DNA of 32,062 bases. Source: a virus. Shown here in pieces: positions 10,422 through 29,434 of this stretch; position 1 is the first letter of the stretch, and each line of letters opens with the position of its first letter. The DNA is taken from the IMG/VR virus record IMGVR_UViG_3300042894_003450, positions 1 to 32,062 of that record; one strand, given 5' to 3'. The translations under genes were made by a program, and so were the position numbers. Below the pieces are notes generated by a model. That model did no database searches. It had not been told where the DNA came from and saw only the letters and a list, made by a program, of their open reading frames with translations.

Positions 10422-11189
10422 ATGAGAATTTGCGTATCGGGTACTGCCTGCACGGGTAAGACAACACTTGTTAATAACTTTTTAGATGTGTGGGTAATGT
10501 ACAAGACACCTGAGAAAACATATAGAGATGTTATAGCTGAAAAGAAACTTTCACACTCTGCAAATACTACGACAGATACACAATGGGCTATTCTAGAGTT
10601 CATGGTAGACCAGCTACAGAGTACAACACCGAAGGATAAGATTATCTTTGATCGGTGCCCGTTTGATAATCTTGTTTATACTCTATGGGCGCATGATAAG
10701 GGACTAGAAGGATTTGATAAAGTGTATGTTGATAAGTGTATTAAGATTACAAAAGAATCACTTCGTAGTCTTGATCTTATATTGCTTCTTCGATATGATC
10801 AATCTATTCCTATTGTAGATGATGGTACACGTGAAACAAATAAAGAATACATTATTGAAATAGATAATATATTTACAGCTTTACTAGAACAGTACAAGCA
10901 GAACTACGAGTCAGATATATTCTTTCCTGCTAATGATTCACCTGGTATTATAGAGCTACCAACCGGTCAGCAAGCTCGTATTGATCTAATCAGTCAATAC
11001 CTTAACGCTGAGGGTGAAATTTATGGTGATGAACATTCACTGTTTAACCCTGAAAAACTTGATGAGCTTGAGGCTCTCGTTAAGCAACAAAAGGCTGCGC
11101 TTGAATCAGAAGAAAATGAACGAGCGTTATTTGAGAAATTTGGAATGCCAAAATTACCCGTCAAACCTAAGAGCAATATTATTATATGA
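10422..11189 (+). CDS. P-loop nucleoside/nucleotide kinase-like protein (AAA_28/NadR-kinase-like)
   Basis: The P-loop is at the very N-terminus: MRICVSGTACTGKTTL with G7...G12-K13-T14. IIFDRCPFDNLVY (D77, R78) is the DR motif found in NadR-type ribosylnicotinamide kinases, thymidylate kinases and related AAA_28 proteins. KEYIIEIDNIF and later helices fit a lid region. Residues about 195-245 form a charged, coiled-coil-like extension (LDELEALVKQQKAALESEENERALFEKFG) not usual for the family. The last 4 bases overlap the first glycosyltransferase gene (ATGA). The substrate is unknown; deoxynucleoside monophosphates or nicotinamide riboside are candidates. Confidence 0.7.
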   Translation: MRICVSGTACTGKTTLVNNFLDVWVMYKTPEKTYRDVIAEKKLSHSANTTTDTQWAILEFMVDQLQSTTPKDKIIFDRCPFDNLVYTLWAHDKGLEGFDKVYVDKCIKITKESLRSLDLILLLRYDQSIPIVDDGTRETNKEYIIEIDNIFTALLEQYKQNYESDIFFPANDSPGIIELPTGQQARIDLISQYLNAEGEIYGDEHSLFNPEKLDELEALVKQQKAALESEENERALFEKFGMPKLPVKPKSNIII

Positions 11190-12025
11190 TTAATAAAAAG
11201 GTTGGAATAGGTATTATTACTTGTAATAGACCTGAGTATCTCAAGCAATTATTAGACAGTATAAACTACTGTAACTGGGCTGATTTAGTTATTATCAACG
11301 ATGGTGATAAATTTGAGCTTGAAGGTTACAACTATTATATACAACACAACGAAAAGAATCTTGGAGTTGGAAAATCTAAGAATAAAGCTATGAAGCATCT
11401 TTTAGATATAGGTTGTGATTATATCTTCATCATAGAAGATGATATGATTATATTAGATGATTCTGTTTTTGATAAGTACATTCAAGCTAGCGAAGTAAGC
11501 GGTATTCAACACTTCAATTACGGTCCAGGTTCACCTTTTAATCGCAAGCAGGAAATTAAAAATTTCGATCTACATAATAGAGACCAACTATCAAACGTTT
11601 CTTTGCCAGCTCCTAAACTCACAATAGACTATAAAGTTTCACAAATAGATTTATATGAACACTGCGCTGGTGTCTTTAGTTTCTTTACTAGAGAGATCCT
11701 CAACAAGGTGGGATTAAATAACGAAGAGTTTTTTAATGCATGGGAGCATGTTGAACACACCTATAGAATTATTTTAGAGAAAGGTCATCCACCTTTTTGG
11801 TGGTTTGCAGATATTAAAGATAGTGCAACATATCTTAAAGTTCAAGAAGAAGCTATTAAAAAAAGTTCCACTTCACAAGATAAAGAAAAGTGGTTTGCGA
11901 ATATTGCAAAAGGTAGAGAGCTGTATAAAAGCATACACGGTATGTATCCTAATCTAACTCCACATACTTCAAAAACAGATGTTATTACTACACTTAAGCA
12001 AATTAAGTCATTATGGACGATCTGA
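11186..12025 (+). CDS. Glycosyltransferase family 2-like protein
   Basis: The GT-A fold is indicated by VGIGIITCNRPEYLKQLLDSI at the N-terminus (nucleotide-sugar binding strand) and by FIIEDDMII with E84-D85-D86 as the metal-binding DxD equivalent. The segment from HCAGVFSFF to AWEHVEHTYRI fits the acceptor-side and catalytic-base region (E-H/E pairs). It has no membrane segment, so it acts in the cytoplasm of the infected cell. It is the first of the sugar genes and is coupled to the kinase gene upstream (ATGA) and to the next gene by a 13-base overlap. Donor and acceptor sugars cannot be read from the sequence. Confidence 0.8.
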   Translation: MINKKVGIGIITCNRPEYLKQLLDSINYCNWADLVIINDGDKFELEGYNYYIQHNEKNLGVGKSKNKAMKHLLDIGCDYIFIIEDDMIILDDSVFDKYIQASEVSGIQHFNYGPGSPFNRKQEIKNFDLHNRDQLSNVSLPAPKLTIDYKVSQIDLYEHCAGVFSFFTREILNKVGLNNEEFFNAWEHVEHTYRIILEKGHPPFWWFADIKDSATYLKVQEEAIKKSSTSQDKEKWFANIAKGRELYKSIHGMYPNLTPHTSKTDVITTLKQIKSLWTI

Positions 12026-13428
12026 CATTAATTACATGTTCATACAATACACCTGACATTACCTTAACTATGCTCAAATCATGGGCACATGTTCATAGTA
12101 AGACGCAGAGATTAATTATATGTGATAATTCTACAAATAATAATACTAAAGATTTACTACATCAGCATAATATACCATTCGTTTCATTCCCTGGAATGTG
12201 TCACGGTGACGGTGTTAACAGAGCTTTGGAACTTTGTACAACAAAATATGCGCTTCTTGTTGATACTGATGTTATTTTTTTAAGAGATCATAGTTCTATC
12301 TTTAAACAGTTTAAAGGTATGGACCTAGCTATCATGGGAAAGGTAGAAGGTGATCGTGGAGGTAAATGCATACATAATAGAGTTAATCCATGGCATTGTT
12401 TTATTGATGTAGAGAAGATTAAGCAGCATAATATTACTTTCTTCGATAGAGAAAGAATGAAAGATAGCTTTGCCACAGATAAAATATATGATATTGGATC
12501 AACATTTCTTGAAGATATTAAAAAGTCTAATTTAAAAATTGGCAATATTGACCTATCAAATAACTATTACACTCATCTCGAAGGTATGAGTTGGTATAAA
12601 AATAAATTTGATAACACAAAAGAAGACACTGGTATCGATTTCGGTGGTACACATAACAACGTTGCTTTTGTTCATGCGTATGATCAAAAATATAGTATAT
12701 TTCAACGTATTAAGAGTGAGTACGAAGACGTAAAAATATCTAACAAGTTTATTTACGAAGAGCCAATTCTCCTAATTAAATTTCCAACAAGAGGTAGACC
12801 TGATAAGTTCTTTAAGACTCTAGACAAATACTATCAACTTCTATCAAACAAATGTAAAGTAAAGTTTTTTGTAACGTGTGATATTGATGATACAACTATG
12901 AATAACTCTATTGTTCGTGAGAAATTTAAAACGTATCAAAACTTAGAAGTAGAATATAGTAACAGTAAAACTAAGGTAGAAGCGATTAATTCGAATGTAA
13001 GTAGTCAAGACTTTCAAATATTACTATTAGCATCTGATGATATGATACCGGTTATACAGGGATATGATGAGATCATTGTAAACACGATGTGTGAAACATT
13101 TCCGGATTTTGATGGTATAGTTTGGTTTAATGATGGAGTTCAACAAAATAGACTTAATACTCTTTGTATTTTAGGTAAAACATATTACAATAGGTTCGGA
13201 TACATTTACCATCCTGGTTATAAATCACTATGGTGTGATATGGAATTCACAATGGTAGGTAACTCGCTAACCAAACAAAAGTACTTTGATCAAGTAATTA
13301 TTAAGCACGAACATCACTCTGTAATAAACAGTGAAATGGATGATACTTATATTCAAAACGAAATGTATGAGAATGAAGACAAAAAAACTTTTATAGAGAG
13401 ACGTAGTAAACAGTTTGATCTAATATGA
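12013..13428 (+). CDS. Tandem two-domain glycosyltransferase
   Basis: At 471 residues this is twice the size of its neighbours. Domain 1 starts with LTLITCSYNTPDITLTMLKSW and has LLVDTDVIFL (D84-T85-D86), a GT2-type DxD. Domain 2 begins near residue 250 with LIKFPTRGRPDKFFKTLDKY and has LLLASDDMIP (D342-D343) as a second DxD. Its C-terminus holds histidines and acidic residues (KHEHHSVINSEMDD) that could complete a metal or catalytic site. Two active sites suggest that two successive sugar additions, or a repeating disaccharide, could be made by one polypeptide, as in bifunctional polysaccharide synthases; that is inference. It ends in an ATGA overlap with the next gene. Confidence 0.78.
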   Translation: MDDLTLITCSYNTPDITLTMLKSWAHVHSKTQRLIICDNSTNNNTKDLLHQHNIPFVSFPGMCHGDGVNRALELCTTKYALLVDTDVIFLRDHSSIFKQFKGMDLAIMGKVEGDRGGKCIHNRVNPWHCFIDVEKIKQHNITFFDRERMKDSFATDKIYDIGSTFLEDIKKSNLKIGNIDLSNNYYTHLEGMSWYKNKFDNTKEDTGIDFGGTHNNVAFVHAYDQKYSIFQRIKSEYEDVKISNKFIYEEPILLIKFPTRGRPDKFFKTLDKYYQLLSNKCKVKFFVTCDIDDTTMNNSIVREKFKTYQNLEVEYSNSKTKVEAINSNVSSQDFQILLLASDDMIPVIQGYDEIIVNTMCETFPDFDGIVWFNDGVQQNRLNTLCILGKTYYNRFGYIYHPGYKSLWCDMEFTMVGNSLTKQKYFDQVIIKHEHHSVINSEMDDTYIQNEMYENEDKKTFIERRSKQFDLI

Positions 13429-14117
13429 AAATTAAAGCCTATACACTATTTACAGATTCACATAAAAAATTCCTAACGGATTATTTTATACCAACCTTTC
13501 CATACCGTGAAGAAGTGGAGTTAACTATCTTACATAGACCTCAAAAGTGCAAGACAGCAAGTTTTGAAACAGACGGTTGGCATGATACAATGCGAGACAA
13601 AGTCAATTGCTTTATTGAAGGTATTAATCAATGTTCGGATGAAGAGATTTTTATGTTTATAGATCCTGACATTCAATTTTTTGGTGATTTTTATGAAGAT
13701 ATTATTAATGGATTAGCTAATAAAGAAGCTGTGTTTCAAAACGACGTATTTGGCGGTGTAAATACAGGGTTTTTTGCTGTTAAAAATACACAAAGAGTAC
13801 GATCTTTTTTCAAGACAGTGTTAGGTAATCTAGATTCTTTTAGCCAAGAACAAGTACTCGCAAATCACCTTCTAACTAATTCTATCCGTTACCCAGCAAT
13901 AGCTATTGATTGGGAATTTTTACCAATAAAATACTGGACATATGGGCATATCGCTGCATTACCAGCAACTGGACCAGAGCCATATAGAGGAAGCTGGACT
14001 CCTGAAGCTCCAGATTTTGATGTACCAAAAGATATAGTTATTCATCATGCTAACTGGACTGCTGGTATTGATAATAAACTAAAATTGCTTAACATTGTAC
14101 GTAATAAACTCTCATGA
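13425..14117 (+). CDS. Nucleotide-diphospho-sugar transferase (PF03407-like)
   Basis: The 230-residue product has the order expected of this GT-A family: a strand KAYTLFTDSH at the start, FMFIDPDIQFFGDF with D80-P81-D82 as the metal site, FGGVNTGFFAVKNTQ in the middle, SFSQEQVLANHLL downstream, and VIHHANWTAG near the end. The family includes plant and viral galactosyl- and xylosyltransferase-like enzymes. No membrane anchor is present. ATGA overlaps join it to both neighbours. The specific sugar is unknown. Confidence 0.78.
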   Translation: MKIKAYTLFTDSHKKFLTDYFIPTFPYREEVELTILHRPQKCKTASFETDGWHDTMRDKVNCFIEGINQCSDEEIFMFIDPDIQFFGDFYEDIINGLANKEAVFQNDVFGGVNTGFFAVKNTQRVRSFFKTVLGNLDSFSQEQVLANHLLTNSIRYPAIAIDWEFLPIKYWTYGHIAALPATGPEPYRGSWTPEAPDFDVPKDIVIHHANWTAGIDNKLKLLNIVRNKLS

Positions 14118-14962
14118 TTATTGACTTTAAAAATTTAAGACCACCAGCAGATTACCCAGTATATCCACCTTACCATACAGGTAATTATCTAGAAGAACAT
14201 TTTTATAGCTTTTATAAGGAACATAAAAATGAATTTGATAAGACAGGGTACACTCTAATACCTATCTTTTGGACTAATGTGTATATTACCAATAAAAATG
14301 TTAATTTAATTCAACCTTACTTAGATTCACTTCCATTAGGCAAATATTTTACTATATCACAACATGATGATGCGGTAAAAGAGCAATTACCGATAGGTAC
14401 TTTAAGTTTTGAAGCTGGTGGCAATGGAAACGGTATGCCGATACCGTTAATATGTTCTCCAATTGATGAGCAAAAAACACAACTAGTACAAAAAGACATA
14501 TTCTGCTCTTTTGTAGGCTCTATTACGCACAGTATCAGAACTGAAATATATAACAGATACTCAAATGATAGTTCCTTCTTAATTTTAGGAAAAAACTGGA
14601 CAAGTACAGTTAGTGAAGATAGCTTTAATACTTTTATAGATATAACTAAACGTTCAAAATTTTCGTTATGTCCTAGAGGTTATGGAGCTCAGAGTTTTAG
14701 GTTGTATGAAGTTTTGCAGTTAAACTCTGTACCAGTAGTTATTTACGATAAAGAATGGTTTCCATTTAATGATGTAATTGACTGGAATAGTTTTTGTATT
14801 ACATTACATGTAGATAACATTGACAAACTAAAAACTATTTTGGAAAGTATAACTGAACAACAATATGATCAGATGCTTCAAAATGGTAAAAATATATATA
14901 GCAAATATTTTACTATGAACGGTATGTCAACACGTATATTACAAATTCTACAATCTCAATAA
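14114..14962 (+). CDS. Exostosin-like glycosyltransferase (GT47-like) 1
   Basis: The 282-residue product ends in an exostosin-type GT-B domain. FSLCPRGYGAQSFRLYEVLQLNSVPVVIYD (from about residue 183) matches the nucleotide-sugar-binding block CPxGxGxxSxRxxEalxxGxiPVii, and W-P-F follows as in exostosins. The front half (about 1-120) contains WTNVYITNK, typical of the acceptor domain. It is coupled to the previous gene by ATGA and lies 2 bases before the next exostosin-like gene; the two share the domain but differ widely, so they are probably old paralogues. Donor unknown. Confidence 0.78.
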   Translation: MIIDFKNLRPPADYPVYPPYHTGNYLEEHFYSFYKEHKNEFDKTGYTLIPIFWTNVYITNKNVNLIQPYLDSLPLGKYFTISQHDDAVKEQLPIGTLSFEAGGNGNGMPIPLICSPIDEQKTQLVQKDIFCSFVGSITHSIRTEIYNRYSNDSSFLILGKNWTSTVSEDSFNTFIDITKRSKFSLCPRGYGAQSFRLYEVLQLNSVPVVIYDKEWFPFNDVIDWNSFCITLHVDNIDKLKTILESITEQQYDQMLQNGKNIYSKYFTMNGMSTRILQILQSQ

Positions 14963-14964
14963 TT

Positions 14965-15879
14965 ATGAATATTCATATACCTGATATACTTGAGAAAAAA
15001 GATTTTAGCTGTTTTACTGAGCTATTCTTTATTATACCATACATTGGACATGACCTCTATAAAACTGTCTTACAGAACGCTAATTGGTGGAATGAGGGAC
15101 TCTTTACAAAATTATACTTCAACGGCTCTATACATAACTTAGCTTCTCTATCTGAATGTGATATAGTGTGTATCCCCTTTAAATACACTCAAGAAGATAT
15201 TCGTATAATCAACATTTGCTCTGAAGCTCAAAAATATAATAAAAAGGTAGTTGCGATTTTTAATGATGATTACACAGGTAGTTTCAATTTACCTGCAAAT
15301 CTCATTTTATTTAGAACATCTGCATGTAAATCAAAACTAGGTAATAATGAACGTATTTTACCTGTCCTTATACCTGATCATTCATCTGTAGTCAATATTA
15401 AACCACAAGAAGATATTAGAGCAACGGTGGGATTTTGTGGACATGCTGAAGGTATACGAGCACGTATATTGCGGAGTGTTGAGAATGTATTAGGTTCTAG
15501 CCAATGTAATTTTATTGTACGCTCTACGTTTTATCATCATACTGGTCAAGTCAATATTAAGACACGTCGTGAATATTGTAAAAATATAGCAGATAATCTC
15601 TTCACTTTATGTATTCGTGGAGCTGGTAATTTTTCATATAGATTTTATGAAGCATTAAGCATGGGTAGAATTCCTATCCTCATCGATACAGATAACGCCT
15701 TACCGTTTGATCGAGAAATTCTCTGGGATAATTATATTATTAAAATACAAGAGAGTGATATAGATAAGCTACCTTCATTAATTAAATCGTGCAAAATAGA
15801 TCCTATTGAAGTGCGTCGTTTATGGGAGGGTTACTTTTCACCAGAAGGCTACACAAATAATTTTTATAAAGACATATAA
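14965..15879 (+). CDS. Exostosin-like glycosyltransferase (GT47-like) 2
   Basis: FTLCIRGAGNFSYRFYEALSMGRIPILIDTDNALPFD (from about residue 213) is the same exostosin-type binding block as in the upstream gene, with R and E positions kept. The 304-residue protein also has VGFCGHAEGIRARIL (about 156-170), matching the FxGxxxxxxR segment before the donor domain of the family. No signal or membrane segment is seen. A 40-base AT-rich gap follows, the first clear gap within the island, which could hold an internal promoter. Confidence 0.75.
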   Translation: MNIHIPDILEKKDFSCFTELFFIIPYIGHDLYKTVLQNANWWNEGLFTKLYFNGSIHNLASLSECDIVCIPFKYTQEDIRIINICSEAQKYNKKVVAIFNDDYTGSFNLPANLILFRTSACKSKLGNNERILPVLIPDHSSVVNIKPQEDIRATVGFCGHAEGIRARILRSVENVLGSSQCNFIVRSTFYHHTGQVNIKTRREYCKNIADNLFTLCIRGAGNFSYRFYEALSMGRIPILIDTDNALPFDREILWDNYIIKIQESDIDKLPSLIKSCKIDPIEVRRLWEGYFSPEGYTNNFYKDI

Positions 15880-15919
15880 TATTTATTTGCAAAATAATTT
15901 TTATTTCATAATATAGTAT

Positions 15920-16717
15920 ATGAGTGTTATTGTTAATCATATTTCAGGGTGCAGACATGGTAATCAGCTATGTCAACACATGTTCGGTAGAATAATATCT
16001 GAAAGGTTAAAATTTAAATTATTTGGAATTGATAAAAATCATAGAGAGTTTTCTTTAAACGGATTTAACCTAAACTACGACCAATCAGGCTACTCATACC
16101 ATGAAACACCTGTACAGTATATTGGTACAAGTAGATCTTATGATTATAGTGAGTCACTCATCTGGGCCCACCCAGATGTTGATTTAGATTCTATATGTAA
16201 TGATACTACACCTCGTAGAATTATATTAGAGGGTTTTTTCCAGAGGAAAAAATATTTTATTCCATATAAAGAGCAAATTAAAACTTGGTATAACTTTATA
16301 AAATACGATATACCTAATGATCATGCAGCTATTCACATTAGATTAGGTGACTTGAGAGAGACAAAACATCCTGATCTGCTGCCAGTTGAGTACTATCACA
16401 ACGCATTAGACATGCTTAACTTTAATAAACTAACTGTATGTACAGATACACCTACAGATAGTGAATACATTCTACCGTTAATTAAAAAATATAATGCACA
16501 AATTTTTACAGGTGATGAACGAGAGACAATTTGTTTTCTCGCTTCACATAATAACTTAGTATTAAGTGTCGGTTCGTTTAGTTTTTGGGCAAGCTTATTT
16601 AGTGAAGGGCAAAACATTATTAATGCTATACCTACAAAAGGTAATAATCGAATTGATCCGAAAAACGGCGTTGATCTATTAATACAAAGTCCAAGCCACA
16701 AATACATAACTTTATGA
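15920..16717 (+). CDS. Fucosyltransferase-like protein (GT11, alpha-1,2 type)
   Basis: The 265-residue product starts with SGCRHGNQLCQHMFG (9-23), matching the GRLGNQLFQ opening of GT11 enzymes. AAIHIRLGD (136-144; H139, R141, G143, D144) corresponds to the GDP-binding HxRRGD motif, and LLPVEYYHNAL follows as in the family. VLSVGSFSFWASLFSE matches the NSTFSWWGA motif. GT11 enzymes transfer L-fucose from GDP-fucose; a phage enzyme could use another GDP-sugar, and a GDP-mannose epimerase-like gene lies at the end of this island. The gene follows an AT-rich gap with TATAGTAT abutting the ATG. Confidence 0.8.
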   Translation: MSVIVNHISGCRHGNQLCQHMFGRIISERLKFKLFGIDKNHREFSLNGFNLNYDQSGYSYHETPVQYIGTSRSYDYSESLIWAHPDVDLDSICNDTTPRRIILEGFFQRKKYFIPYKEQIKTWYNFIKYDIPNDHAAIHIRLGDLRETKHPDLLPVEYYHNALDMLNFNKLTVCTDTPTDSEYILPLIKKYNAQIFTGDERETICFLASHNNLVLSVGSFSFWASLFSEGQNIINAIPTKGNNRIDPKNGVDLLIQSPSHKYITL

Positions 16718-17502
16718 AATTAATAAAAGGTACATCTAAAGGATTCTTTGGAGTTGCAAACGATACTGCAAGACACATTTCGCAGTGCATACAAAATAAC
16801 GAAGAGTGGGTTATCGGTTGGGGAGATGAAACTCTGTATCACGACTCTGCTTACGGAGATAACGTTTGGGAATATTATTTTGAACAACCATTTAAGAAAA
16901 ATCCACCGTATCAAGTAGTACAGGACTATACCGAATTAGCATTACTAAAGGATAATAGTTTCAGATCTACAATGAATTATATCTATACTAATTATTTTAT
17001 TCTTAACGAGGGTACAGAAAGTAAAATATCTAATAATTATAAATTATTTGAAGATAATAAAGTATTGGGAGTTCATATAAGACGTACAGATAAATTTCTA
17101 GTAGGGATGCATGGTACTACATATAGACATACACCTGTTAATTTAGAATTATTTAAAGCGGAAATAGATATGGTGATTGACGACTATGATTACATATATC
17201 TTGCAACAGATTGTACAGACACTGTTAAATATATAAAGGAACTATATGGCAAAAAAGTAATATGTAATATTAATGCAATACGAGGTAATAATACAATCAG
17301 TATTCATAATAACTTTAAAAATGTATCTGGTTATATAAAAGGTCTTAATGTACTTACAGATGTAATTTATTTGTCAAAATGTAAACACCTAATAAGATCA
17401 TCATCAAATGTATCTATAACATCTCTCTATCTCAATTTAGATTTGACTTGGCTTAATGTTAACGAAAAATATCATAACGACTCTGAACAGGAAATTCTTT
17501 GA
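16714..17502 (+). CDS. GT23/NodZ-like (alpha-1,6-fucosyltransferase-type) protein
   Basis: VLGVHIRRTDKF (117-128; H121, R123, R124, D126) is the GDP-sugar-binding HxRRxDK motif of FUT8/NodZ-type transferases. The later block LTDVIYLSKCKHLIRSSSNVSITSLYLN matches the DxxxLSxCxxxxgTxSSxxxxla motif near their C-terminus. The 262-residue protein has no anchor. With the GT11-like gene just upstream (ATGA overlap), the phage encodes two different GT-B enzymes of fucosyltransferase type in tandem, which suggests a glycan carrying fucose or another GDP-derived L-sugar. A 30-base AT-rich gap follows. Confidence 0.75.
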   Translation: MKLIKGTSKGFFGVANDTARHISQCIQNNEEWVIGWGDETLYHDSAYGDNVWEYYFEQPFKKNPPYQVVQDYTELALLKDNSFRSTMNYIYTNYFILNEGTESKISNNYKLFEDNKVLGVHIRRTDKFLVGMHGTTYRHTPVNLELFKAEIDMVIDDYDYIYLATDCTDTVKYIKELYGKKVICNINAIRGNNTISIHNNFKNVSGYIKGLNVLTDVIYLSKCKHLIRSSSNVSITSLYLNLDLTWLNVNEKYHNDSEQEIL

Positions 17503-17532
17503 AATTTTAAGAGTTACGAGTATATAAGTTAT

Positions 17533-18345
17533 ATGATATATCTTCTTACACATATAGGTGGTAAATTTCCCGACTATGTAAAGTATAATATACGGCAAAT
17601 ACATAGAAAAAATAGTAACTGTACAATATATCTATGTGGTGATACAAAACCAGATTTTATAGATGAAAAATATACTTTTATACATACAAGCGAATTAAAT
17701 ATACCTCATACTAATTATTTAATTAATGAGCCTGATCCATTATGGTATGGCTCATTAATGAGAATTTTCTTAATTAATTCTTTTATGCAGAAAGAAAATG
17801 TTGAGGGTATTATACATTTTGATAATGATGTAATGATTTATAGTGATTTTACTAAATTAATAAATGAGTTAGATAGAAAAAATTACATAACACCGCATAA
17901 GTATACTGAGTATACGTTTGGCTTTTCTTATTTAAATAATAAAGATGAATTTAACATATTAACAAATCGTATACTAGAGACTATAGCACACGGCGAATCA
18001 AAAGTTAGACAGATAACAGGAGATGAAATACATGAAATGAGATTATTAGGCTTATGTGGAAATGACTTAATTTCTCCTTTACCTGTACATCCTGAAATAG
18101 GTAGTATTAATGAATTTATTTTCGATCCTTCTTCATACGGTCAGTATATTGGAGGTACTCCAAACGGACATAGTCCTGGCTTTATTGATAAAACACAGCT
18201 AGTGGGTAATTATTTTAGTGAGCAAAAACCAGATATTATCTATAGTCCTGAAGACGAAATTTTTCATTATAGATATGCAGATAAAATATATAAAATTTTT
18301 AATTTGCATGTGCATAGCAAAAAATTAGAAATGTTTTTATTATGA
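17533..18345 (+). CDS. GT-A-type glycosyltransferase
   Basis: The 270-residue product has GIIHFDNDVMIYSDF with D97-N98-D99 as the DxD metal site, after IYLLTHIGGKFPDYVKYNIRQI at the start, which fits the donor-binding strand and helix. WYGSLMRIFLINSFM before the DxD is a pattern seen in several small bacterial and viral transferases. The C-terminal NLHVHSKKLEMF contains a HVHSK segment usual at the end of the same group. The DNA here is more AT-rich than the flanking housekeeping genes. It ends in an ATGA overlap. Donor unknown. Confidence 0.72.
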   Translation: MIYLLTHIGGKFPDYVKYNIRQIHRKNSNCTIYLCGDTKPDFIDEKYTFIHTSELNIPHTNYLINEPDPLWYGSLMRIFLINSFMQKENVEGIIHFDNDVMIYSDFTKLINELDRKNYITPHKYTEYTFGFSYLNNKDEFNILTNRILETIAHGESKVRQITGDEIHEMRLLGLCGNDLISPLPVHPEIGSINEFIFDPSSYGQYIGGTPNGHSPGFIDKTQLVGNYFSEQKPDIIYSPEDEIFHYRYADKIYKIFNLHVHSKKLEMFLL

Positions 18346-19064
18346 AGTTCGACGTTGTAATACCATATTGCGAGAAAGATGAATATACAATTTATAGCTG
18401 CATTGATTCACTTAAAAATATTAGTGAGATTAATAATATATATGTTGTATCTTCAAAAGAATTTACATATAAAAACATAAAATGGGTTAATGAGGATATT
18501 TTTCCGTTTAAAATAGGAGATATAACGAGGCTAAACTCTTCTATTCCACAAGAACGAGCAGGTTGGTATTATCAGCAATTAATAAAATTACATAGTTTTT
18601 TAATTCCTAATATTACAGATAGTTTTTTAATACTAGATTCTGATGTTATATTCTTGAGAGATGTGAATTTTTTTGAGAATAATAAGTTTAAATATAATTA
18701 TTCGCATGAATATACAGCACAATACTTTGAGTGTATGTATCGGTTAAATAATTTTTTTGTAAAGAGTGTAAACATTTCAGGTATTTGTCATCATATGATT
18801 TTTGAAAAGAAAATACTAGATGAAATTTTTAATTTAATAGAACAACCTGGTGAAGAAGTATATGAAACAATAATTAAGGCTGTTACTCACAGTCATATTG
18901 GTTTTTCAGAATATGAACTATACTTTAATTACATTTTTAAAAAATATCCAGAATCTTATACAATAAGGCATCTTAATTACGATGATGTAACAGACTATAA
19001 ATTGTTTTTACAAAATAATAATTATGACTACGTTGCTAACCACGCGTGGAAAAGATTAGAATAA
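18342..19064 (+). CDS. DUF6492-like glycosyltransferase
   Basis: FDVVIPYCEKDEYTIYSCIDSL at the start and FLILDSDVIFLRDV (D99-S100-D101) indicate a GT-A enzyme. RAGWYYQQLIKLHSF before the DxD and SGICHHMIFEKKILDEIF followed by GFSEYELYFNYI match the DUF6492 group (GWxxQQxxKL ... FSEYExY), which I recall from capsule and viral sugar loci. The 240-residue length is typical. It is coupled upstream by ATGA. The next coding region starts 8 bases after its stop. Donor and acceptor unknown. Confidence 0.72.
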   Translation: MKFDVVIPYCEKDEYTIYSCIDSLKNISEINNIYVVSSKEFTYKNIKWVNEDIFPFKIGDITRLNSSIPQERAGWYYQQLIKLHSFLIPNITDSFLILDSDVIFLRDVNFFENNKFKYNYSHEYTAQYFECMYRLNNFFVKSVNISGICHHMIFEKKILDEIFNLIEQPGEEVYETIIKAVTHSHIGFSEYELYFNYIFKKYPESYTIRHLNYDDVTDYKLFLQNNNYDYVANHAWKRLE

Positions 19065-19072
19065 ATTTAATT

Positions 19073-19702
19073 ATGATTAAAACATATACACATAGACACG
19101 GGACATATACATCTGATAAATTTTTAAATTATATAGATAAAACAAAAGTAAAAACTATCGTGGAAGGGGGTAGTAGAGATTTAATTGATGCTTTATTTCT
19201 TGAAGAATATTTTAATGATGCTCACATTCATAGTTTTGAATGTAATATAGAAGCTCATCAGATATGCTTGACAAACTTACAAAGAAGTTTAGGTAGAATA
19301 ACACTCAACTCAATGGCTATGTGTAACGAAAATACACAGCTAAAATTTTACGCGTTTGATCATATTGCGACTGAACATCATGACATTGGAGTCTCTTCAA
19401 TATATAGACATATAAATCCTATCGATGTACCGCAAAAAGAGATAGAAGTTGCAGGTATAAGGTTAGATACGTATTGTAATTTAAATAATATTCAGCAGAT
19501 AGATTTTTTATGTCTAGATGTACAGGGAGCTGAGCAGATAGTTTTAGAAGGTTTAGGTGATATAATAAATAAGCTAACATATTTGGTAGTTGAAAATGAT
19601 AGTATGTTTTATAATGGCGCTCCAACTATTAATCAGACGCTATTAGAAGATTTTAAAATCGTGGATACAATTTGTAACGACATACTTTACATAAGAAAAT
19701 GA
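19073..19702 (+). CDS. FkbM-family methyltransferase 1
   Basis: I choose the ATG at 19073 (209 residues) over a GTG at 19046, because that one overlaps the previous gene and adds only nine non-conserved residues. VKTIVEGGSRDLIDALFLEEYF with EGGSRD is the SAM-binding motif I of FkbM-type enzymes (usually DVGAxxG). HSFECNIE is motif II with the ribose-binding acidic residue. IDFLCLDVQGAEQIVLEGL is the diagnostic FkbM block (D-xQGxE). FkbM enzymes O-methylate sugars or polyketides, so it probably caps a sugar of the glycan. ATGA overlap with the next gene. Confidence 0.82.
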   Translation: MIKTYTHRHGTYTSDKFLNYIDKTKVKTIVEGGSRDLIDALFLEEYFNDAHIHSFECNIEAHQICLTNLQRSLGRITLNSMAMCNENTQLKFYAFDHIATEHHDIGVSSIYRHINPIDVPQKEIEVAGIRLDTYCNLNNIQQIDFLCLDVQGAEQIVLEGLGDIINKLTYLVVENDSMFYNGAPTINQTLLEDFKIVDTICNDILYIRK

Positions 19703-20514
19703 TATCAGGTGAGCAATTTCAACAGTTAGCAGAAATCGGACTATATAGTGATATTAACTGTATTATACGTGATCAAGTTCTCGCCTTTAAACAAAATATT
19801 ATACAGATCGATGAACTAAGCGTTGAAGATATTAAAAAATATAATAAAATATTTGTTTATACACATTGCTTACCACATTTTTTTAATAAATTTTTTAAAT
19901 ATTTAAATCCAGGTACAGTACTTATAACACACAACTCTGATGACTGTATTACAGAGAATTTTTCAACATATTTGAATGGTAATACTATTTCAAAATGGTA
20001 TTGTCAGAATAAACTCATTAGTCACCCTAAACTTTTTTCGCTACCTATAGGACTAGCTAACAGTCAGTGGTCACATGGCGATCAACAACTTATAAAAAAT
20101 ATTAAAGAAACGTGTAAGCAAAAAAACAATTTAATTTTTAAGAATTTCGACAAAAATACAAATAAAGATGAACGTACTCAGTGTGATAATATAACCAATA
20201 AAAACGGTATATACATGTATCCTAAAACTTCTAACAAAGAATATTGGAGTCAACTAGCGAGTAGTTGTTTTGCTATTTCACCTGCTGGAAACGGAATCGA
20301 TTGCCACCGAATATGGGAATGTTTATATCTGCGTACTGTACCAATTGTCTTAAAACATGAAGCTCTAGAGCAGTTTAAACATCTACCTATACTATTTGTA
20401 GATAGTTGGGAAGAAGTTACTATTAGTTTCTTACAATCTAAACTTAATAACTTTATTGATGTAGATTGGAATATAGCTGAGCTAGATATTAATTTTTGGA
20501 AACAAATAATATAA
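19699..20514 (+). CDS. Exostosin-like glycosyltransferase (GT47-like) 3
   Basis: KTSNKEYWSQLASSCFAISPAGNGIDCHRIWECLYLRTVPIVLKHE (from about residue 176) is the exostosin-type donor block, with P-x-GNGxDxHRxWE in place of CPxGxGxxSxRxxE; this variant is common in viral and bacterial members. HPKLFSLPIGLANSQW upstream (about 110-125) is the acceptor-side PxGl segment of the same group. The product is 271 residues with no anchor. It is the third exostosin-like gene of the island. A 44-base AT-rich gap follows. Confidence 0.75.
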   Translation: MISGEQFQQLAEIGLYSDINCIIRDQVLAFKQNIIQIDELSVEDIKKYNKIFVYTHCLPHFFNKFFKYLNPGTVLITHNSDDCITENFSTYLNGNTISKWYCQNKLISHPKLFSLPIGLANSQWSHGDQQLIKNIKETCKQKNNLIFKNFDKNTNKDERTQCDNITNKNGIYMYPKTSNKEYWSQLASSCFAISPAGNGIDCHRIWECLYLRTVPIVLKHEALEQFKHLPILFVDSWEEVTISFLQSKLNNFIDVDWNIAELDINFWKQII

Positions 20515-20558
20515 AAACTTTATATTGAAAGGTAAAATTTTTGTATTAAATACAGTAT

Positions 20559-21320
20559 ATGAGTGATAAGATATGCACGGTTCTTGTAACAAATAATGCT
20601 TATTTTGATAGGTTAATACAAACACTTAATAACATATTATCTTACGAATATCAAGGTGATATATGTATTGTTATAGGTGATGATTTATTAAATTCAGATA
20701 AATTAAATCATTCTTTATTAAAATTAAGTAATATTACTATAAAGCATTTTCCTGATATTGCGTTTACAGAGGAATTTAATAATAAATTTTATTCATTAAA
20801 CCGTGAGGAATTCTGGTCACAAAAAAAATTCCAATATCATAAATTAAATCTTTTTGATATTTTCTTTAAACAGTGGGATTATATATTTTATATAGATTCA
20901 GGAGCAAAGATATATAGCTCTATAATGCCTATTATTAACGCTAAGAAAAAAGACAAATTTGTAGCACATTCAGATGCATATCCTGAATATTTATGGAAAC
21001 TTAAAGTACAATTTATAGAAGAAGATCCTATATTTAATGACTTAGCTAAAAAATATAATTTTGATATAAATTATCCACAAACAACAATCATGCTATATGA
21101 TACATCTATTATAGACTCTAATACATTTACTGATTTAGTAGAGCTTACTGAAGAATGTAAGATTTCAAAGACAAATGATCAAGGTATAATTGCTCTATAT
21201 TTTACTAATATTAAACCTCTTTGGGAACAAATTCAGTTAGAGGACGAAAATACTTGGTTTTATGATTTTGAGCTAAGACCAACTAAATTAAATAAACCGC
21301 ATATTATGTTAAAGCGATAG
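20559..21320 (+). CDS. GT-A-like glycosyltransferase with atypical DSG motif
   Basis: The 253-residue product begins KICTVLVTNNAYFDRLIQTLNNIL (nucleotide-sugar strand and helix) and has WDYIFYIDSGAKIYSSI, in which D113-S114-G115 takes the place of the DxD. Absence of the second Asp may mean weaker metal binding, use of another residue, or a changed mechanism. NYPQTTIMLYDTSII and TNDQGIIALYF in the second half fit the acceptor domain (NDQ/xxN motif of PF03407-like and GT8-like enzymes). It lies between AT-rich gaps of 44 and 33 bases, so it may be a separately acquired unit. Assignment rests on fold pattern only. Confidence 0.6.
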   Translation: MSDKICTVLVTNNAYFDRLIQTLNNILSYEYQGDICIVIGDDLLNSDKLNHSLLKLSNITIKHFPDIAFTEEFNNKFYSLNREEFWSQKKFQYHKLNLFDIFFKQWDYIFYIDSGAKIYSSIMPIINAKKKDKFVAHSDAYPEYLWKLKVQFIEEDPIFNDLAKKYNFDINYPQTTIMLYDTSIIDSNTFTDLVELTEECKISKTNDQGIIALYFTNIKPLWEQIQLEDENTWFYDFELRPTKLNKPHIMLKR

Positions 21321-21353
21321 AATGAATAATTAAAAATATTACCAAATTATAGT

Positions 21354-22025
21354 ATGTCAGAAATAAAAATATGGTCTCTCGACGAAGTAAAAAGCGTCAT
21401 TTTTCAGTACGAGTATAAACAAGTTGAAATATTTAAAAATGTTTTAACAAAAATTAATACCTCTATACCCACTATGATTGAGTTAGGAGCTGCTGAAGGA
21501 CTCTACTCTCTTATGTTTAGCGAATTCTTTGAGCTCAAAAAACAAGCTCATAAAAACATCTGTCTAGAGTTATGTGACCATAAAATTAAAGAAATACATA
21601 AGAACCTACCAACTGCTATAACTCACCATGGATATATTGGAGAGCTCGACATGTCAGATGGAGATGTACAAAATTTGCTTGCTAATCAATCTCTAGATTC
21701 TCAACGTAAATATACTCTTACTGAAATTTTAAAAATTAATAACATTTCAACAGTAGACATTTTACATGTTGATATACAAGGCTCTGAATTGGAATTAGTG
21801 GAAGAACTTGAAGCTAACCAATTGTTTAATAAAATAAGATTTTATTTTATTTCTACACACCGCTTAGCTACTAGAAACACTCATGCACGAGTTCTTGAAT
21901 ATTTTTCTAAGTTTTCTGATGCAGTTATTATATTAAATGAACCTGATCTAGATAATGGCGGTGGTCTTGGAGATAGTTTATTAATAGTGGAAAATATCGG
22001 ATTTAATCATATACTCAGTATATGA
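21354..22025 (+). CDS. FkbM-like methyltransferase 2
   Basis: MIELGAAEGLYSLMF (41-55) is SAM motif I and NICLELCDHK is motif II. VDILHVDIQGSELELVEEL (about 137-155) is the FkbM block with D-IQGSE. The C-terminus (LDNGGGLGDSLLIVEN) fits the closing strands of the fold. At 223 residues it is close to the FkbM gene at 19073 in layout but too different in sequence to be a recent copy, so the two probably methylate different positions or sugars. It ends in an ATGA overlap with the next glycosyltransferase. Confidence 0.8.
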   Translation: MSEIKIWSLDEVKSVIFQYEYKQVEIFKNVLTKINTSIPTMIELGAAEGLYSLMFSEFFELKKQAHKNICLELCDHKIKEIHKNLPTAITHHGYIGELDMSDGDVQNLLANQSLDSQRKYTLTEILKINNISTVDILHVDIQGSELELVEELEANQLFNKIRFYFISTHRLATRNTHARVLEYFSKFSDAVIILNEPDLDNGGGLGDSLLIVENIGFNHILSI

Positions 22026-22870
22026 TTAAAATAGGTTTAGTATGTGTACCTGAAATAGAAATTATTGGACATAGTTTATTTGACAACTTTTATAAAGCTT
22101 TAAAAAATTATGTTAATTCAGAAATTGTATTTGTTAAGTCAGTAAATGACTTAGTCGATTTAAATGCTTTAATTATTGTTGACGAACATCTTTCTTTTAA
22201 TATTGACATTTGGAAAAAACCGGAGTTTATTAATAGAATAAACGAATTAAACTTAAGTACAATAGTCTTTAATTTTGAAAAAGTATATAATAGCTCTTAT
22301 ACTTGGAATGAAGATCATCAAAATAATTTATTACAGATAAAAAATCTACATCAATTTATATCAGATGTAGATGATGCTAAAATACTTAATAAATCATATG
22401 TTAATAGACAATTTTTATCTAGAAGTACTGTATTGGTTCCTCCTATTACAGAAAAAAAAGATGAAATTTTATTTATAGGTCAAATATATCCTGATTATAC
22501 TACTCGTGTAACTTTATTAAAAGATCTTGAGGAAGCTAATTGCGGAGTAAAAATTATTAAAAGTCAAAGAAAATATACATACACTGAATATTTAAATATA
22601 TTAAATGAACACAAATACATACTAAATCCGTTAGGAATGGGAAAATTTCTAAATTTGAGATTTTATGAAGCATTAGAATTAGGATGTACAGTGATACAAC
22701 AATATACAGATAGTATGTTAGAATGGTATCCAGAACTTAATAGACCTGACGTCATTAAGTTTAAAGACGTAGCAGATTTTTTAACCTTAGATTTTAAAAC
22801 TACACCAGGAAAAAATATTTATTTAGAAGATTACTTTAACGAAATAAATCTTAAGTCCTTGTTTAATTAA
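22022..22870 (+). CDS. GT-B-type glycosyltransferase (GT1/exostosin-like)
   Basis: KYILNPLGMGKFLNLRFYEALELGCTVIQQY (from about residue 199) is a GT-B donor-binding block, with R-F-Y-E-A-L-E-L-G in the position of the catalytic-domain E. EILFIGQIYPDYTTRVTLLKDL (about 149-170) matches the FxGxxxxxR segment that begins the second Rossmann domain. The first 140 residues form a less conserved acceptor domain. The DNA is very AT-rich. The product is 282 residues with no anchor, and the gene is followed by a 27-base gap. Confidence 0.68.
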   Translation: MIKIGLVCVPEIEIIGHSLFDNFYKALKNYVNSEIVFVKSVNDLVDLNALIIVDEHLSFNIDIWKKPEFINRINELNLSTIVFNFEKVYNSSYTWNEDHQNNLLQIKNLHQFISDVDDAKILNKSYVNRQFLSRSTVLVPPITEKKDEILFIGQIYPDYTTRVTLLKDLEEANCGVKIIKSQRKYTYTEYLNILNEHKYILNPLGMGKFLNLRFYEALELGCTVIQQYTDSMLEWYPELNRPDVIKFKDVADFLTLDFKTTPGKNIYLEDYFNEINLKSLFN

Positions 22871-22897
22871 TTTGTTGTTAAACTAAACTATAATATT

Positions 22898-23551
22898 ATG
22901 AAAACTATAGAAGAATTAGCTCATTACTACGCTACAGACAAAAGGATGTCTGATCACGGATTCACAAAATTTTACGAAAAACATTTTGAATCTCGTAGGG
23001 ATCAAAAACTTAATATTTGCGAGATAGGTATACTTAATCATCCTGATAAGGTTAATAGACCTTACGAGGGAGCATCTCTATTGATGTGGAGAGATTATTT
23101 TTACAATTCAGGGGTGATTGGTATTGATATTAACGACCATTCGAGATTAAATGGAGAAAGAATTAGAACGTATATGGCAGATCAAGGTAATAGATCTCAA
23201 CTAAAAGATCTATTTCAAGATAAACAATTAGATATAATAATTGAAGATGGAAGTCATTTTATGCACCATCAACAAATTAGTCTTGGAGTATTATTTCGCA
23301 ATTTAAAACCAGGAGGTATTTTTGTAATAGAAGATCTTCATACTTCACACCAAGATATGCTACCTTCATTTAGACGGAATATCGAAGACACTATTACATT
23401 AAACATGTTACAAGATTTTAATAAAACTGGCAGTATCAAAAGTACATGTATGACCGCTGAGGAAATTAACTATCTAAATGATAACATCATGGAGTGTGTA
23501 ATTGAAACGGCGAATATGTCAGAAATAGCATTTTTATATAAGAAAAAATAA
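22898..23551 (+). CDS. SAM-dependent O-methyltransferase (macrocin-O-methyltransferase-like)
   Basis: The 217-residue product has the pattern of MycE/TylF-like sugar O-methyltransferases. YYATDKRMSDHGFTKFYEKHFESRR (10-34) is the lead segment, and NICEIGI (39-45) is SAM motif I. GASLLMWRDYF (58-68) and GVIGIDIND (72-80) are the next blocks. DIIIEDGSHFMHHQQ (112-126) carries the metal-binding D and H residues, and PGGIFVIEDLHTSH follows. These enzymes methylate sugar hydroxyls with Mg2+. It is the third methyltransferase of the island and lies directly before the sugar epimerase. The start is preceded by an AT-rich gap with TATAAT. Confidence 0.82.
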   Translation: MKTIEELAHYYATDKRMSDHGFTKFYEKHFESRRDQKLNICEIGILNHPDKVNRPYEGASLLMWRDYFYNSGVIGIDINDHSRLNGERIRTYMADQGNRSQLKDLFQDKQLDIIIEDGSHFMHHQQISLGVLFRNLKPGGIFVIEDLHTSHQDMLPSFRRNIEDTITLNMLQDFNKTGSIKSTCMTAEEINYLNDNIMECVIETANMSEIAFLYKKK

Positions 23552-23553
23552 TT

Positions 23554-24543
23554 ATGAAAACAGCACTAGTATTAGGAGCGGGAGGATTTATAGGCAATCA
23601 CCTCGTTAATAGATTGAAAAATGAAGGTTACTGGGTAAGAGGTGTGGATTTAAAGGTTCCTGAATATCAAGAAAAATCTAACGCAGATGATTTTGTTGTA
23701 GGTGATCTCAAAGAGACTATTTTAATAAACAAAGTATTCTTTGCACCCTTTCAACAAAGCATGCAAGATAAAGGTTTTGACGAAGTATATCAGCTAGCAG
23801 CTGATATGGGTGGTGCAGGTTATATATTCTCTGGTGAAAATGATGCTAACGTTATGCATAACTCTGCGGTTATTAACCTTAATGTTGCTGATGCTGCAGT
23901 AAGATATAAAGTTCAAAAGCTTTTTTATTCTTCCTCAGCTTGTATGTATCCTGAACATAACCAAATGAATCCCATTAATCCTAACTGCTCAGAGGGCTCA
24001 GCATATCCCGCTAATCCAGATAGTGAGTATGGTTGGGAGAAGCTTTTTAGTGAGCGCTTGTTTCTAGCTTATAAACGTAATTATAACTTAAATGTACGTA
24101 TTGCAAGATTTCATAATATTTTTGGACCACTCGGTACATGGAAAGGTGGTAAAGAAAAAGCACCAGCAGCTATTTGTAGAAAGGTTATCGAAGCTACTTC
24201 AGAGATTGAAATTTGGGGAGATGGTGAGCAAACACGATCGTTCTTATATATTGACGAGTGTATAGACGGTATTAGAAAATTAATGGAATCAGAATTTAGC
24301 GGACCGGTTAATATTGGCTCTGAAGAAATGGTTACAATTAACGAGCTTGTCGATATTGCGTGTAGTTTTGAAAATAAAAGTCTTGCACGTGTTCATAAGT
24401 TAGATGCTCCGCTAGGCGTCCGTGGAAGAACTTCTTGCAATAAACTTATACAACAATCAATCGGTTGGTCACCTAACTACCCTCTTAAAAAGGGACTTGA
24501 AATTGTTTACCACTGGATTAAAGAGCAATCTAGACTATCATAA
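23554..24543 (+). CDS. GDP-mannose 3,5-epimerase-like NAD-dependent sugar epimerase
   Basis: The 329-residue extended SDR protein has GAGGFIG (8-14) for NAD, AADMGGAGYIF (82-92), SSSAC (126-130), YGWEK (159-163) and REKAPAA-like KEKAPAAICRK (200-210). Measured against plant GDP-mannose 3,5-epimerase (Cys145, Tyr174, Lys217 in Arabidopsis), the candidates C130, Y159 and K202 have the same spacing. All catalytic residues are therefore retained. The reaction would turn GDP-D-mannose into GDP-L-galactose or GDP-L-gulose, a donor for the GDP-dependent GT11/GT23-like enzymes upstream. It closes the sugar island; a DUF366 gene follows after 3 bases. Other GDP/NDP-sugar epimerases are possible but less likely. 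Confidence 0.85.
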   Translation: MKTALVLGAGGFIGNHLVNRLKNEGYWVRGVDLKVPEYQEKSNADDFVVGDLKETILINKVFFAPFQQSMQDKGFDEVYQLAADMGGAGYIFSGENDANVMHNSAVINLNVADAAVRYKVQKLFYSSSACMYPEHNQMNPINPNCSEGSAYPANPDSEYGWEKLFSERLFLAYKRNYNLNVRIARFHNIFGPLGTWKGGKEKAPAAICRKVIEATSEIEIWGDGEQTRSFLYIDECIDGIRKLMESEFSGPVNIGSEEMVTINELVDIACSFENKSLARVHKLDAPLGVRGRTSCNKLIQQSIGWSPNYPLKKGLEIVYHWIKEQSRLS

Positions 24544-29417: not shown

Positions 29418-29434
29418 ATATATATTACTAAGCG

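What the first reader, a model, noticed from the sequence alone, without database searches (positions are those of the whole stretch)
11186..24543. Thirteen-kilobase phage glycan-assembly island
Sixteen co-directional genes: about twelve glycosyltransferases of GT-A and GT-B type (GT2, tandem GT, PF03407-like, three exostosin-like, GT11-like, GT23-like, DUF6492-like and others), two FkbM-like and one macrocin-type O-methyltransferase, and a GDP-mannose epimerase-like enzyme. None has a membrane anchor, polymerase or flippase, so this is not a typical surface polysaccharide locus. It looks like cytoplasmic assembly of a long, branched, methyl-capped glycan on a phage component, comparable in idea to chlorovirus capsid glycans. 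The acceptor (fibre, capsid or modified DNA base) is unknown.
Basis: partly seen in the sequence, partly recalled or inferred. Interest (0 to 1): 0.8.

Follow-up and report, generated by a model that had tools for sequence, protein, structure and literature searches.

The report
Phage sugar-coat island with fixed starter
An uncultured T4-like virus of bacteria carries sixteen sugar-building genes led by one conserved enzyme related to those that decorate bacterial flagella and some virus shells, which suggests that the virus coats one of its own proteins with a long, strain-specific sugar chain.

Summary
Positions 11186-24543 hold 16 co-directional genes: 12 glycosyltransferases (GTs), 3 methyltransferases and a GDP-mannose 3,5-epimerase. 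None is a multi-pass membrane protein.

The window is a fragment of an uncultured T4-like myovirus. In all 24 related records examined, the same interval (between a dNMP-kinase-like gene and a DUF366 gene) holds such an island with largely different content. Only the first gene, g01 (GT2), is in all 24; it leads in 22. Of 298 ORFs there, none has two or more hydrophobic segments.

In a tree the window's g01 clade groups (support 87/67) with a proteobacterial clade in which 8 of 9 members lie beside flagellin or flagellar genes. Among isolated phages, g01-type GTs lie in mycobacteriophage GT clusters, including that of Myrna (reported to have glycosylated proteins), beside homologs of Che8 gp110 (reported essential for capsid glycosylation).

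Best reading: g01 starts an O-glycan on a conserved phage protein; an exchangeable cassette extends and methyl-caps it. The acceptor is not shown; host-surface or DNA modification stay possible. Phage virion glycosylation is known, so this is a larger, hypervariable variant of it.

The parts
10422..11189 (+). dNMP-kinase-like P-loop protein (AAA_28), conserved 5' border of the island
   Evidence: Pfam AAA_28 E 4e-14, PHROG thymidylate kinase; found upstream of the island in the 24 related intervals; no PDB match at E <= 0.01
11186..12025 (+). g01: GT2 glycosyltransferase, leading and conserved gene; proposed priming enzyme
   Evidence: 24 of 24 islands, first among + ORFs of 120 aa or more in 22; invariant E84 D85 D86 and H188; relatives in flagellin loci and mycobacteriophage GT clusters
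12013..13428 (+). g02: GT2-type, 471 aa, probably two GT-A domains
   Evidence: PF00535 above cut-off over residues 6-93; found in 8 of 24 islands at E <= 1e-10
13425..14117 (+). g03: PF03407 nucleotide-diphospho-sugar transferase
   Evidence: E 9e-8, above cut-off
14114..14962 (+). g04: exostosin-like GT47
   Evidence: E 7e-19; 43% identical to a gene of cyanophage S-SKS1
14965..15879 (+). g05: exostosin-like GT47
   Evidence: E 5e-10
15920..16717 (+). g06: GT11
   Evidence: E 3e-7; PHROG 2644 glycosyltransferase
16714..17502 (+). g07: FUT8/NodZ-like (GT23-type)
   Evidence: Pfam E 1e-4, below cut-off; PDB FUT8 E 0.0037
17533..18345 (+). g08: GT-A fold, glycogenin/GT8-like
   Evidence: AlphaFold pLDDT 90.6; Foldseek E 3e-7 to glycogenin
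18342..19064 (+). g09: DUF6492, GT-A-like
   Evidence: E 6e-8, above cut-off; that DUF6492 is GT-A-like is recalled
19046..19702 (+). g10: FkbM-type O-methyltransferase
   Evidence: PF05050 E 6e-10
19699..20514 (+). g11: exostosin/RXYLT1-like GT
   Evidence: RXYLT1_C 28.2 bits, cut-off 27
20559..21320 (+). g12: probable GT-A (GT8-like)
   Evidence: low-confidence model, pLDDT 67; Foldseek E 8e-6 to glycogenin
21354..22025 (+). g13: FkbM-type O-methyltransferase
   Evidence: PF05050 E 2e-5, above cut-off
22022..22870 (+). g14: GT-B-like
   Evidence: Glyco_trans_1_2 E 0.0013, below cut-off; one marginal hydrophobic window
22898..23551 (+). g15: macrocin/MycE-type O-methyltransferase
   Evidence: PDB 8ia9 E 8e-25, 3ssm E 2e-24
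23554..24543 (+). g16: GDP-mannose 3,5-epimerase
   Evidence: PDB 2c59 E 2e-93, motif segments kept
24547..25128 (+). DUF366 protein, conserved 3' border of the island
   Evidence: PF04017 E 7e-19; 32 of 36 related records
28296..31240 (+). tail sheath stabilizer and gp20-type portal genes: start of the T4-like structural block downstream
   Evidence: PHROG 227 and 213; synteny with gp15, gp20, gp21 and gp23 homologs in long relatives

Best explanation
The island is a cytoplasmic O-glycan assembly line for a phage (most likely virion) protein. g01, the conserved leading GT2, adds the first or an early sugar to a conserved acceptor. The other eleven GTs, exchangeable between relatives, extend and branch the chain in the cytoplasm. 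g16 makes GDP-L-galactose or GDP-L-gulose from host GDP-mannose as one donor, and g10, g13 and g15 methylate sugars to cap it. Shown: gene content, fixed head gene with variable tail, lack of export machinery, kinship of g01. Inferred: protein acceptor, virion location, order of steps, sugars, and selection for surface variety.
For: (1) g01 is in 24 of 24 related islands and first in 22, while every other island gene is in 11 or fewer; a fixed first enzyme with a variable remainder is what a constant acceptor and a variable glycan would give. (2) The genome-contig scan gave 20 loci. In 3 of them (Mixta L268, Brenneria L277, P. arcuscaelestis L270) the g01 relative lies among flagellin, FliD and large GT genes. 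In 5 (P. syringae group) it lies about 5-6 kb from flgA. Flagellin O-glycosylation is cytoplasmic (recalled). (3) In the tree the window's g01 clade (23 rows, 100/99) joins the proteobacterial clade (9 rows, 98/99, 8 with flagellar neighbours), joint support 87/67. (4) The g01 profile finds Sebata gp241 (E 2e-22), ByChance gp92, HK542 gp54, prophiGD57-2 gp73 and Lucky2013 gp18 and Myrna gp234. In 5 of these 6 clusters a homolog of Che8 gp110 lies in the same cluster; in the sixth, Lucky2013, the GTs follow the major capsid gene. PMC12363180 (passages) reports glycosylated proteins in Che8, Corndog and Myrna and calls Che8 gp110 essential for capsid glycosylation, citing Freeman 2023 (not seen). 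(5) 0 of 298 island ORFs have two or more hydrophobic segments.
Against: No acceptor was found. No window protein matches Che8 gp110, and the g01 profile does not match Che8 gp108-110 directly. Phage g01s are not one clade: 10 of the 24 aligned rows fall in other groups, and the grouping with the flagellar clade has only 87/67 support under midpoint rooting. The five P. syringae-group loci are close relatives, so the flagellar evidence is about three independent cases. The other 12 bacterial loci do not show flagellar genes; two Ignavibacteria loci (L274, L279) look like exopolysaccharide loci by eye (not tested). Ser/Thr-rich stretches, one kind of likely acceptor, are not more frequent in six relatives than in four T4-like controls.
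Confidence: 0.55

Rival explanations
1. Host surface remodelling: the GTs and methyltransferases act on nascent host LPS/LOS or another host glycan at the inner membrane, changing the surface against competing phages (serotype-conversion-like).
For: This is the authors' reading for GT-rich hypervariable islands of pelagimyophages (PMC7029224, abstract and passages). Cyanophages hold comparable clusters with GME, GMD, fucose synthase and GT11 (S-SSM7, S-SKS1). LPS-core GTs need no phage flippase (recalled). Hypervariability fits competition at the host surface. Some bacterial g01 relatives lie in GT-rich loci that are not flagellar (by eye).
Against: No flippase, polymerase or multi-pass transferase in 24 islands (0 of 298 ORFs). 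The conserved head gene is kin to flagellin-locus and mycobacteriophage GTs. Mycobacteria have no LPS, yet their phages hold g01-type GTs. g01 itself is absent from the six T4-like isolates tested, among them HTVC008M, P-SSM2, S-SSM7 and S-SKS1.
Confidence: 0.25
2. DNA hypermodification: the glycan is built on a modified base of the phage DNA.
For: Precedent: YerA41 DNA carries a substitution of about 1 kDa on thymidine that its authors take to be an oligosaccharide (PMC9023294, passages). g01 has a weak TAGT hit (E 5e-4). preQ0-pathway genes (folE, queD, queE) flank the island and QueC is in 11 of 12 long relatives.
Against: TAGT matches 3 of 24 g01 members, below cut-off in the window, against GT2 in 24 of 24. 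No thymidylate-synthase/hydroxymethylase family member in 12 long relatives and no TGT-family member, which DpdA belongs to (recalled), in 36 records; these records are fragments. In a second lineage the g01 island lies between gp47 and gp46, with queE/queD on the other strand about 8-9 kb away where visible (4 loci), so the link to the preQ0 genes is not constant. The Tet_JBP search was uninformative: its control was silent.
Confidence: 0.13
3. The island modifies a host protein such as flagellin or pilin rather than a virion protein.
For: Bacterial relatives of g01 lie in flagellin loci.
Against: g01-type GTs also occur in phages of mycobacteria, which have no flagella (recalled). The host of this phage is unknown.
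Confidence: 0.07

Closest known systems
Virion glycosylation of mycobacteriophages Che8, Corndog and Myrna (Freeman et al. 2023; known here only through passages of PMC12363180, PMC11256854 and PMC12619734)
   Same: Phage-encoded GTs without an export system. Myrna carries a g01-type GT (gp234) near a Che8 gp110-type GT (gp238), next to virion structural genes.
   Different: Che8 shows 3 annotated GTs against 12 here, with no epimerase or methyltransferases seen in the stretch. No Che8 gp110 homolog was found in this window, and glycosylation is not demonstrated here.
Flagellin glycosylation islands of gamma-proteobacteria
   Same: A g01 relative among GTs (and in Pseudomonas a methyltransferase, fused to it in L270) beside flagellin; cytoplasmic protein O-glycosylation (recalled).
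   Different: No flagellin here, and the large FgtA-like GTs of about 1,200 aa are absent.
GT-rich host recognition cluster of pelagimyophages and LPS-type clusters of cyanophages (PMC7029224; S-SSM7, S-SKS1, P-SSM2)
   Same: T4-like phages, hypervariable islands with GTs, GME and GT11.
   Different: Other location (VrlC to gp14, not kinase-like gene to DUF366); with tail fibres in between; g01 not found in six T4-like isolates; authors infer LPS modification.
Chlorovirus capsid glycans (PMC7019647, passages)
   Same: Virus-encoded GTs and a sugar methyltransferase build a capsid glycan outside the ER.
   Different: Eukaryotic virus, N-linked to the major capsid protein. No sequence comparison was made here.
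YerA41 hypermodified thymidine (PMC9023294, passages)
   Same: Large glycan-like addition by a phage with several GT genes.
   Different: Acceptor is DNA. No Yersinia phage was among the g01 matches; whether YerA41 is in that collection was not checked.

Membership tests
Phage virion O-glycosylation (Che8/Corndog/Myrna type) | Phage-encoded soluble GTs without an export system | tested here: met
   12 GTs; 0 of 298 ORFs of related islands with two or more hydrophobic segments, one marginal window in g14
Phage virion O-glycosylation (Che8/Corndog/Myrna type) | A GT of the kind found in phages with demonstrated virion glycans | tested here: inconclusive
   g01-type GT in Myrna (E 1e-21), but no match of g01 to Che8 gp108-110 and no gp110 homolog in the window
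Phage virion O-glycosylation (Che8/Corndog/Myrna type) | Glycan on capsid, tail tube or other virion protein | not testable with these tools
   needs virions
Flagellin glycosylation island | GTs beside a flagellin gene | tested here: not met
   g01 relatives are (L268, L270, L277); none of the window proteins scanned with PHROGs or Pfam is flagellin
Lipid-linked O-antigen or capsule locus | Flippase, polymerase and membrane initiating transferase | tested here: not met
   no multi-pass ORF in 24 islands; none among the 25 commonest Pfam families shown, of 70, for 142 of the 298 ORFs
DNA glycosylation (T4 or TAGT type) | Hydroxymethyl-pyrimidine source in the genome | tested here: not met
   PF00303 in 0 of 12 long relatives, all fragments; Tet_JBP search uninformative
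DNA glycosylation (T4 or TAGT type) | TAGT-family GT | tested here: not met
   3 of 24 g01 members match at E <= 0.01, the window member below the curated cut-off
Pelagimyophage/cyanophage host recognition cluster | Location between VrlC and neck gene gp14, with tail fibres | tested here: not met
   located between a kinase-like gene and DUF366, upstream of sheath stabilizer and portal
GDP-mannose 3,5-epimerase (g16) | Full-length match and conserved catalytic segments | tested here: met
   E 2e-93 over residues 6-326; SSAC, YxxxK, EKAPAA kept

The most novel reading that the evidence does not exclude
A large group of uncultured aquatic T4-like phages wears a long, branched, methylated glycan on a virion protein. 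One conserved enzyme primes it on an invariant acceptor, and an exchangeable cassette sets its structure, so that close relatives differ in 'glycotype' - a phage counterpart of variable O-antigen, built wholly in the cytoplasm and never exported.
Probability: 0.4. Interest if true: 0.82.

Novelty: new variant of a known kind. Interest (0 to 1): 0.6.

Why it matters
Virion glycosylation is documented for a few mycobacteriophages. If this reading holds, a widespread group of T4-like aquatic phages makes a far larger virion glycan, and changes it rapidly by swapping genes behind a fixed priming enzyme. It would also give a concrete test of what the many GT clusters of marine T4-like phages do, which are usually assumed to modify host LPS. 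The fixed gene g01 is a single handle with which to find the acceptor.

Tried and rejected
Mucin-like acceptor: some relatives encode striking Thr-rich proteins (L293:5459-8976, runs of Thr; TPTVTP repeats in L307, L310, L313, L325). A count over whole contigs showed no enrichment: ORFs with a 40-residue window of 45% or more Ser+Thr, per 100 kb, were 0.9-4.1 in six relatives and 1.7-4.1 in T4, Syn19, HTVC008M and S-SSM7. Runs of 8 Thr codons occur in 3 of 24 relatives and 3 of 13 isolates; TPTxTPTxT in 4 of 24 and 1 of 13. Kept only as something noticed.

TAGT/DNA reading of g01 from its first Pfam hit: not borne out by the family. Deazaguanine as acceptor: no TGT-family gene and no constant linkage. 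PDB searches with g01 alone, DUF366 and the kinase-like protein gave nothing; the g01 profile gave one weak PDB match, 6p61 (E 1e-4). The viral scan with L286's g01 relative found no relative. Corndog could not be tested.

Selection and drops: of 36 related records searched, 24 had queE and DUF366 on either side of an interval that was fetched. The other 12 lacked a flank or had another order (G023 and G025 hold both genes in another arrangement and were not analysed). 9 of the 24 came from the scan with g16, so g16's count (11 of 24) is biased; none came from a scan with g01. Some of the 24 are close to each other (for example L168 and L169). L176's g01 (528 aa) was left out of alignment A1. 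The 142 ORFs come from 14 of the 24 islands, g01 left out. In L178 the flank genes are duplicated and the last pair was used.

Literature: all ten paper searches returned no paper describing this island; only an open-licence library was searched. Papers were seen as abstract and passages (PMC12619734, PMC7029224) or passages (PMC12363180, PMC11256854, PMC9023294, PMC7019647, PMC8402811). Freeman 2023 was not held and Sullivan 2005 is recalled.
Full report
What is there. The record is a 32,062-base IMG/VR virus fragment, 33% G+C or so, without tRNA genes. The 16 genes at 11186-24543 are real ORFs on one strand. Twelve are glycosyltransferases (GTs): seven above Pfam cut-offs, three below (g01, g07, g14), and g08 and g12 by predicted fold, the latter with low confidence. 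Two are FkbM-type methyltransferases, one is a demethylmacrocin/MycE-type O-methyltransferase, and one is a GDP-mannose 3,5-epimerase.

Which phage. Downstream lie DUF366, a GroES-like protein, a helicase, a tail sheath stabilizer and a gp20-type portal. Upstream lie folE, queD, phoH, queE, an HNH nuclease and a dNMP-kinase-like gene. The portal is at best about 32% identical to isolates, all T4-like, with cyanophages best, but 68-100% identical to the 80 listed uncultured contigs of 173 found. In five long relatives the same flanks lie near homologs of gp46, gp47, gp55, uvsW, gp20, gp21 and, in four of the five, gp23. The host is unknown.

A fixed head and a variable body. Of 36 related records, 24 had a usable interval between queE and DUF366. 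In all 24 the space between the kinase-like gene and DUF366 (3.3 to 15.2 kb; 13.4 kb in the window) is filled with such genes: 298 ORFs, 279 on the island strand. g01 is in 24 of 24 and is the first + strand ORF of 120 aa or more in 22, second in the other two. At E <= 1e-10 the next commonest are g16 (11, biased because 9 records were fetched with it), g02 (8), g03 and g04 (7 each). A Pfam tally of 142 other ORFs from 14 islands shows GT2, GT10, GT11, GT47, epimerases, GMD-type dehydratases, methyltransferases and UDP-galactopyranose mutase (25 of 70 families shown). In 12 further loci the g01 gene lies instead after gp47, with gp46 downstream in 10 of them. The module therefore changes place as well as content.

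No export system. None of the 298 ORFs has two or more hydrophobic segments and 13 have one; in the window only g14 has one marginal window. A flippase, polymerase or polyprenyl-phosphate transferase would be multi-pass. This speaks against a self-contained surface polysaccharide locus, but not against action on host LPS core.

What g01 is kin to. The family is GT2 (24 of 24 members) with an invariant EDD; TAGT is only a weak side match (3 of 24). A scan of about 85,000 bacterial and archaeal species genomes gave 20 loci. In Mixta, Brenneria and P. arcuscaelestis the relative lies among flagellin, FliD and large GT genes; in P. arcuscaelestis it is fused to a methyltransferase. In five P. syringae-group genomes it lies about 5-6 kb from flgA, with the same methyltransferase next to it. 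Three other loci are phage-like: L280 with a tail tube gene, L286 with a tail protein, L283 with a weak tape-measure match. The remaining nine show no flagellar gene in the tests made; L274 and L279 look like exopolysaccharide loci by eye. In a 56-row tree the window's clade (23 rows) groups with the proteobacterial clade at 87/67; other phage g01s form separate groups, and the root is only a midpoint.

The mycobacteriophage link. In 50,697 phage records g01 matches 519, of which 488 are Mycobacterium or Mycolicibacterium phages. Their g01-type genes lie in GT clusters: Sebata gp241 with gp245 and Myrna gp234 with gp238, both next to a virion structural gene; ByChance gp92 with gp94; prophiGD57-2 gp73 with gp81; Lucky2013 gp18 in a run of GTs after the major capsid gene. 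gp245, gp238, gp94 and gp81, and gp55 beside gp54 in coliphage HK542, are homologs of Che8 gp110. PMC12363180 (passages) states that glycosylated proteins were found in Che8, Corndog and Myrna and that Che8 gp110 and Corndog gp38 are essential for capsid glycosylation. Against this, g01 does not match Che8 gp108-110, and no window protein matches gp110. These clusters were picked from hits, not at random.

How it most likely works. Host GDP-mannose is turned by g16 into GDP-L-galactose or GDP-L-gulose (enzyme class well supported; product inferred). g01 places the first or an early sugar on a conserved phage protein (inferred from its constancy and kinship). The other GTs, among them fucosyltransferase-like g06 and g07 and three exostosin-like enzymes, extend and branch the chain, and g10, g13 and g15 methylate it (inferred from families). 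The whole is made in the cytoplasm before or during virion assembly. Gene exchange behind g01 gives each lineage its own glycan, perhaps as camouflage, a shield or an adhesion aid; nothing here tells which.

Rivals. Host LPS modification is the published reading for similar islands in pelagimyophages (PMC7029224) and is not excluded. DNA glycosylation has a precedent in YerA41 (PMC9023294), but no hydroxymethyl-pyrimidine enzyme (0 of 12) or TGT-family enzyme (0 of 36) was found, with the caution that the records are fragments. The Tet_JBP search proved nothing because its control was silent. A search for Ser/Thr-rich acceptors gave spectacular single cases but no enrichment over controls.

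Verdict. Observation confirmed; interpretation partly supported. New variant of a known kind: phage virion glycosylation in its size and modularity, if the acceptor is as inferred. The ten paper searches returned no paper describing it, within an open-licence library only.

Noticed in passing
L293:5459-8976 (relative G003); L307, L310, L313 (G020); L325 (G027): Proteins with mucin-like repeats: runs of up to about a dozen Thr with LAP/ARP spacers, or TPTVTP repeats; one neighbour (L293:8989-10887) has a major tropism determinant N-terminal domain. Not enriched overall against controls.
   Followed up: partly
window 5464-6444: Protein without a PHROG match that has a Ser/Thr/Ala/Pro-rich linker (52% Ser+Thr over 40 residues from about residue 140).
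   Followed up: no
window 4752-5414, 6419-7048, 8027-8785: folE, queD and queE; QueC in 11 of 12 long relatives but no TGT-family gene in 36 records: preQ0 synthesis without a known transglycosylase.
   Followed up: partly
window 24547-25128: DUF366 (PF04017) protein conserved next to the island in 32 of 36 related records but in only 1 of 50,697 phage isolate records, Microcystis phage MaAM05. Function unknown.
   Followed up: partly
window 1074-3320: A protein with a KADG ligase-like motif followed by a cytidyltransferase-like protein; several proteins nearby begin with a short motif like FKQF..SEG that recalls T4 capsid-targeting starts (recalled, not tested).
   Followed up: no
L161:2227-4353, L165:2910-4088, L166:6250-7470 and similar: Opposite-strand ORFs of very different length (178-709 aa) inserted between the kinase-like gene and g01 in many relatives; perhaps homing or cargo genes.
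   Followed up: no
L240, L244, L248, L250, L251, L253, L255, L257, L260, L261, L266, L267: A second group of T4-like contigs with the g01 gene after gp47, and gp46 downstream in 10 of 12.
   Followed up: partly
L280, L286: Contigs binned as Cyclobacteriaceae and Acidimicrobiales are phage-like and carry g01 relatives near tail genes; L286 also has a g02 relative beside it.
   Followed up: partly
L178: Kinase-like and DUF366 flank genes are duplicated, giving two islands in tandem.
   Followed up: no
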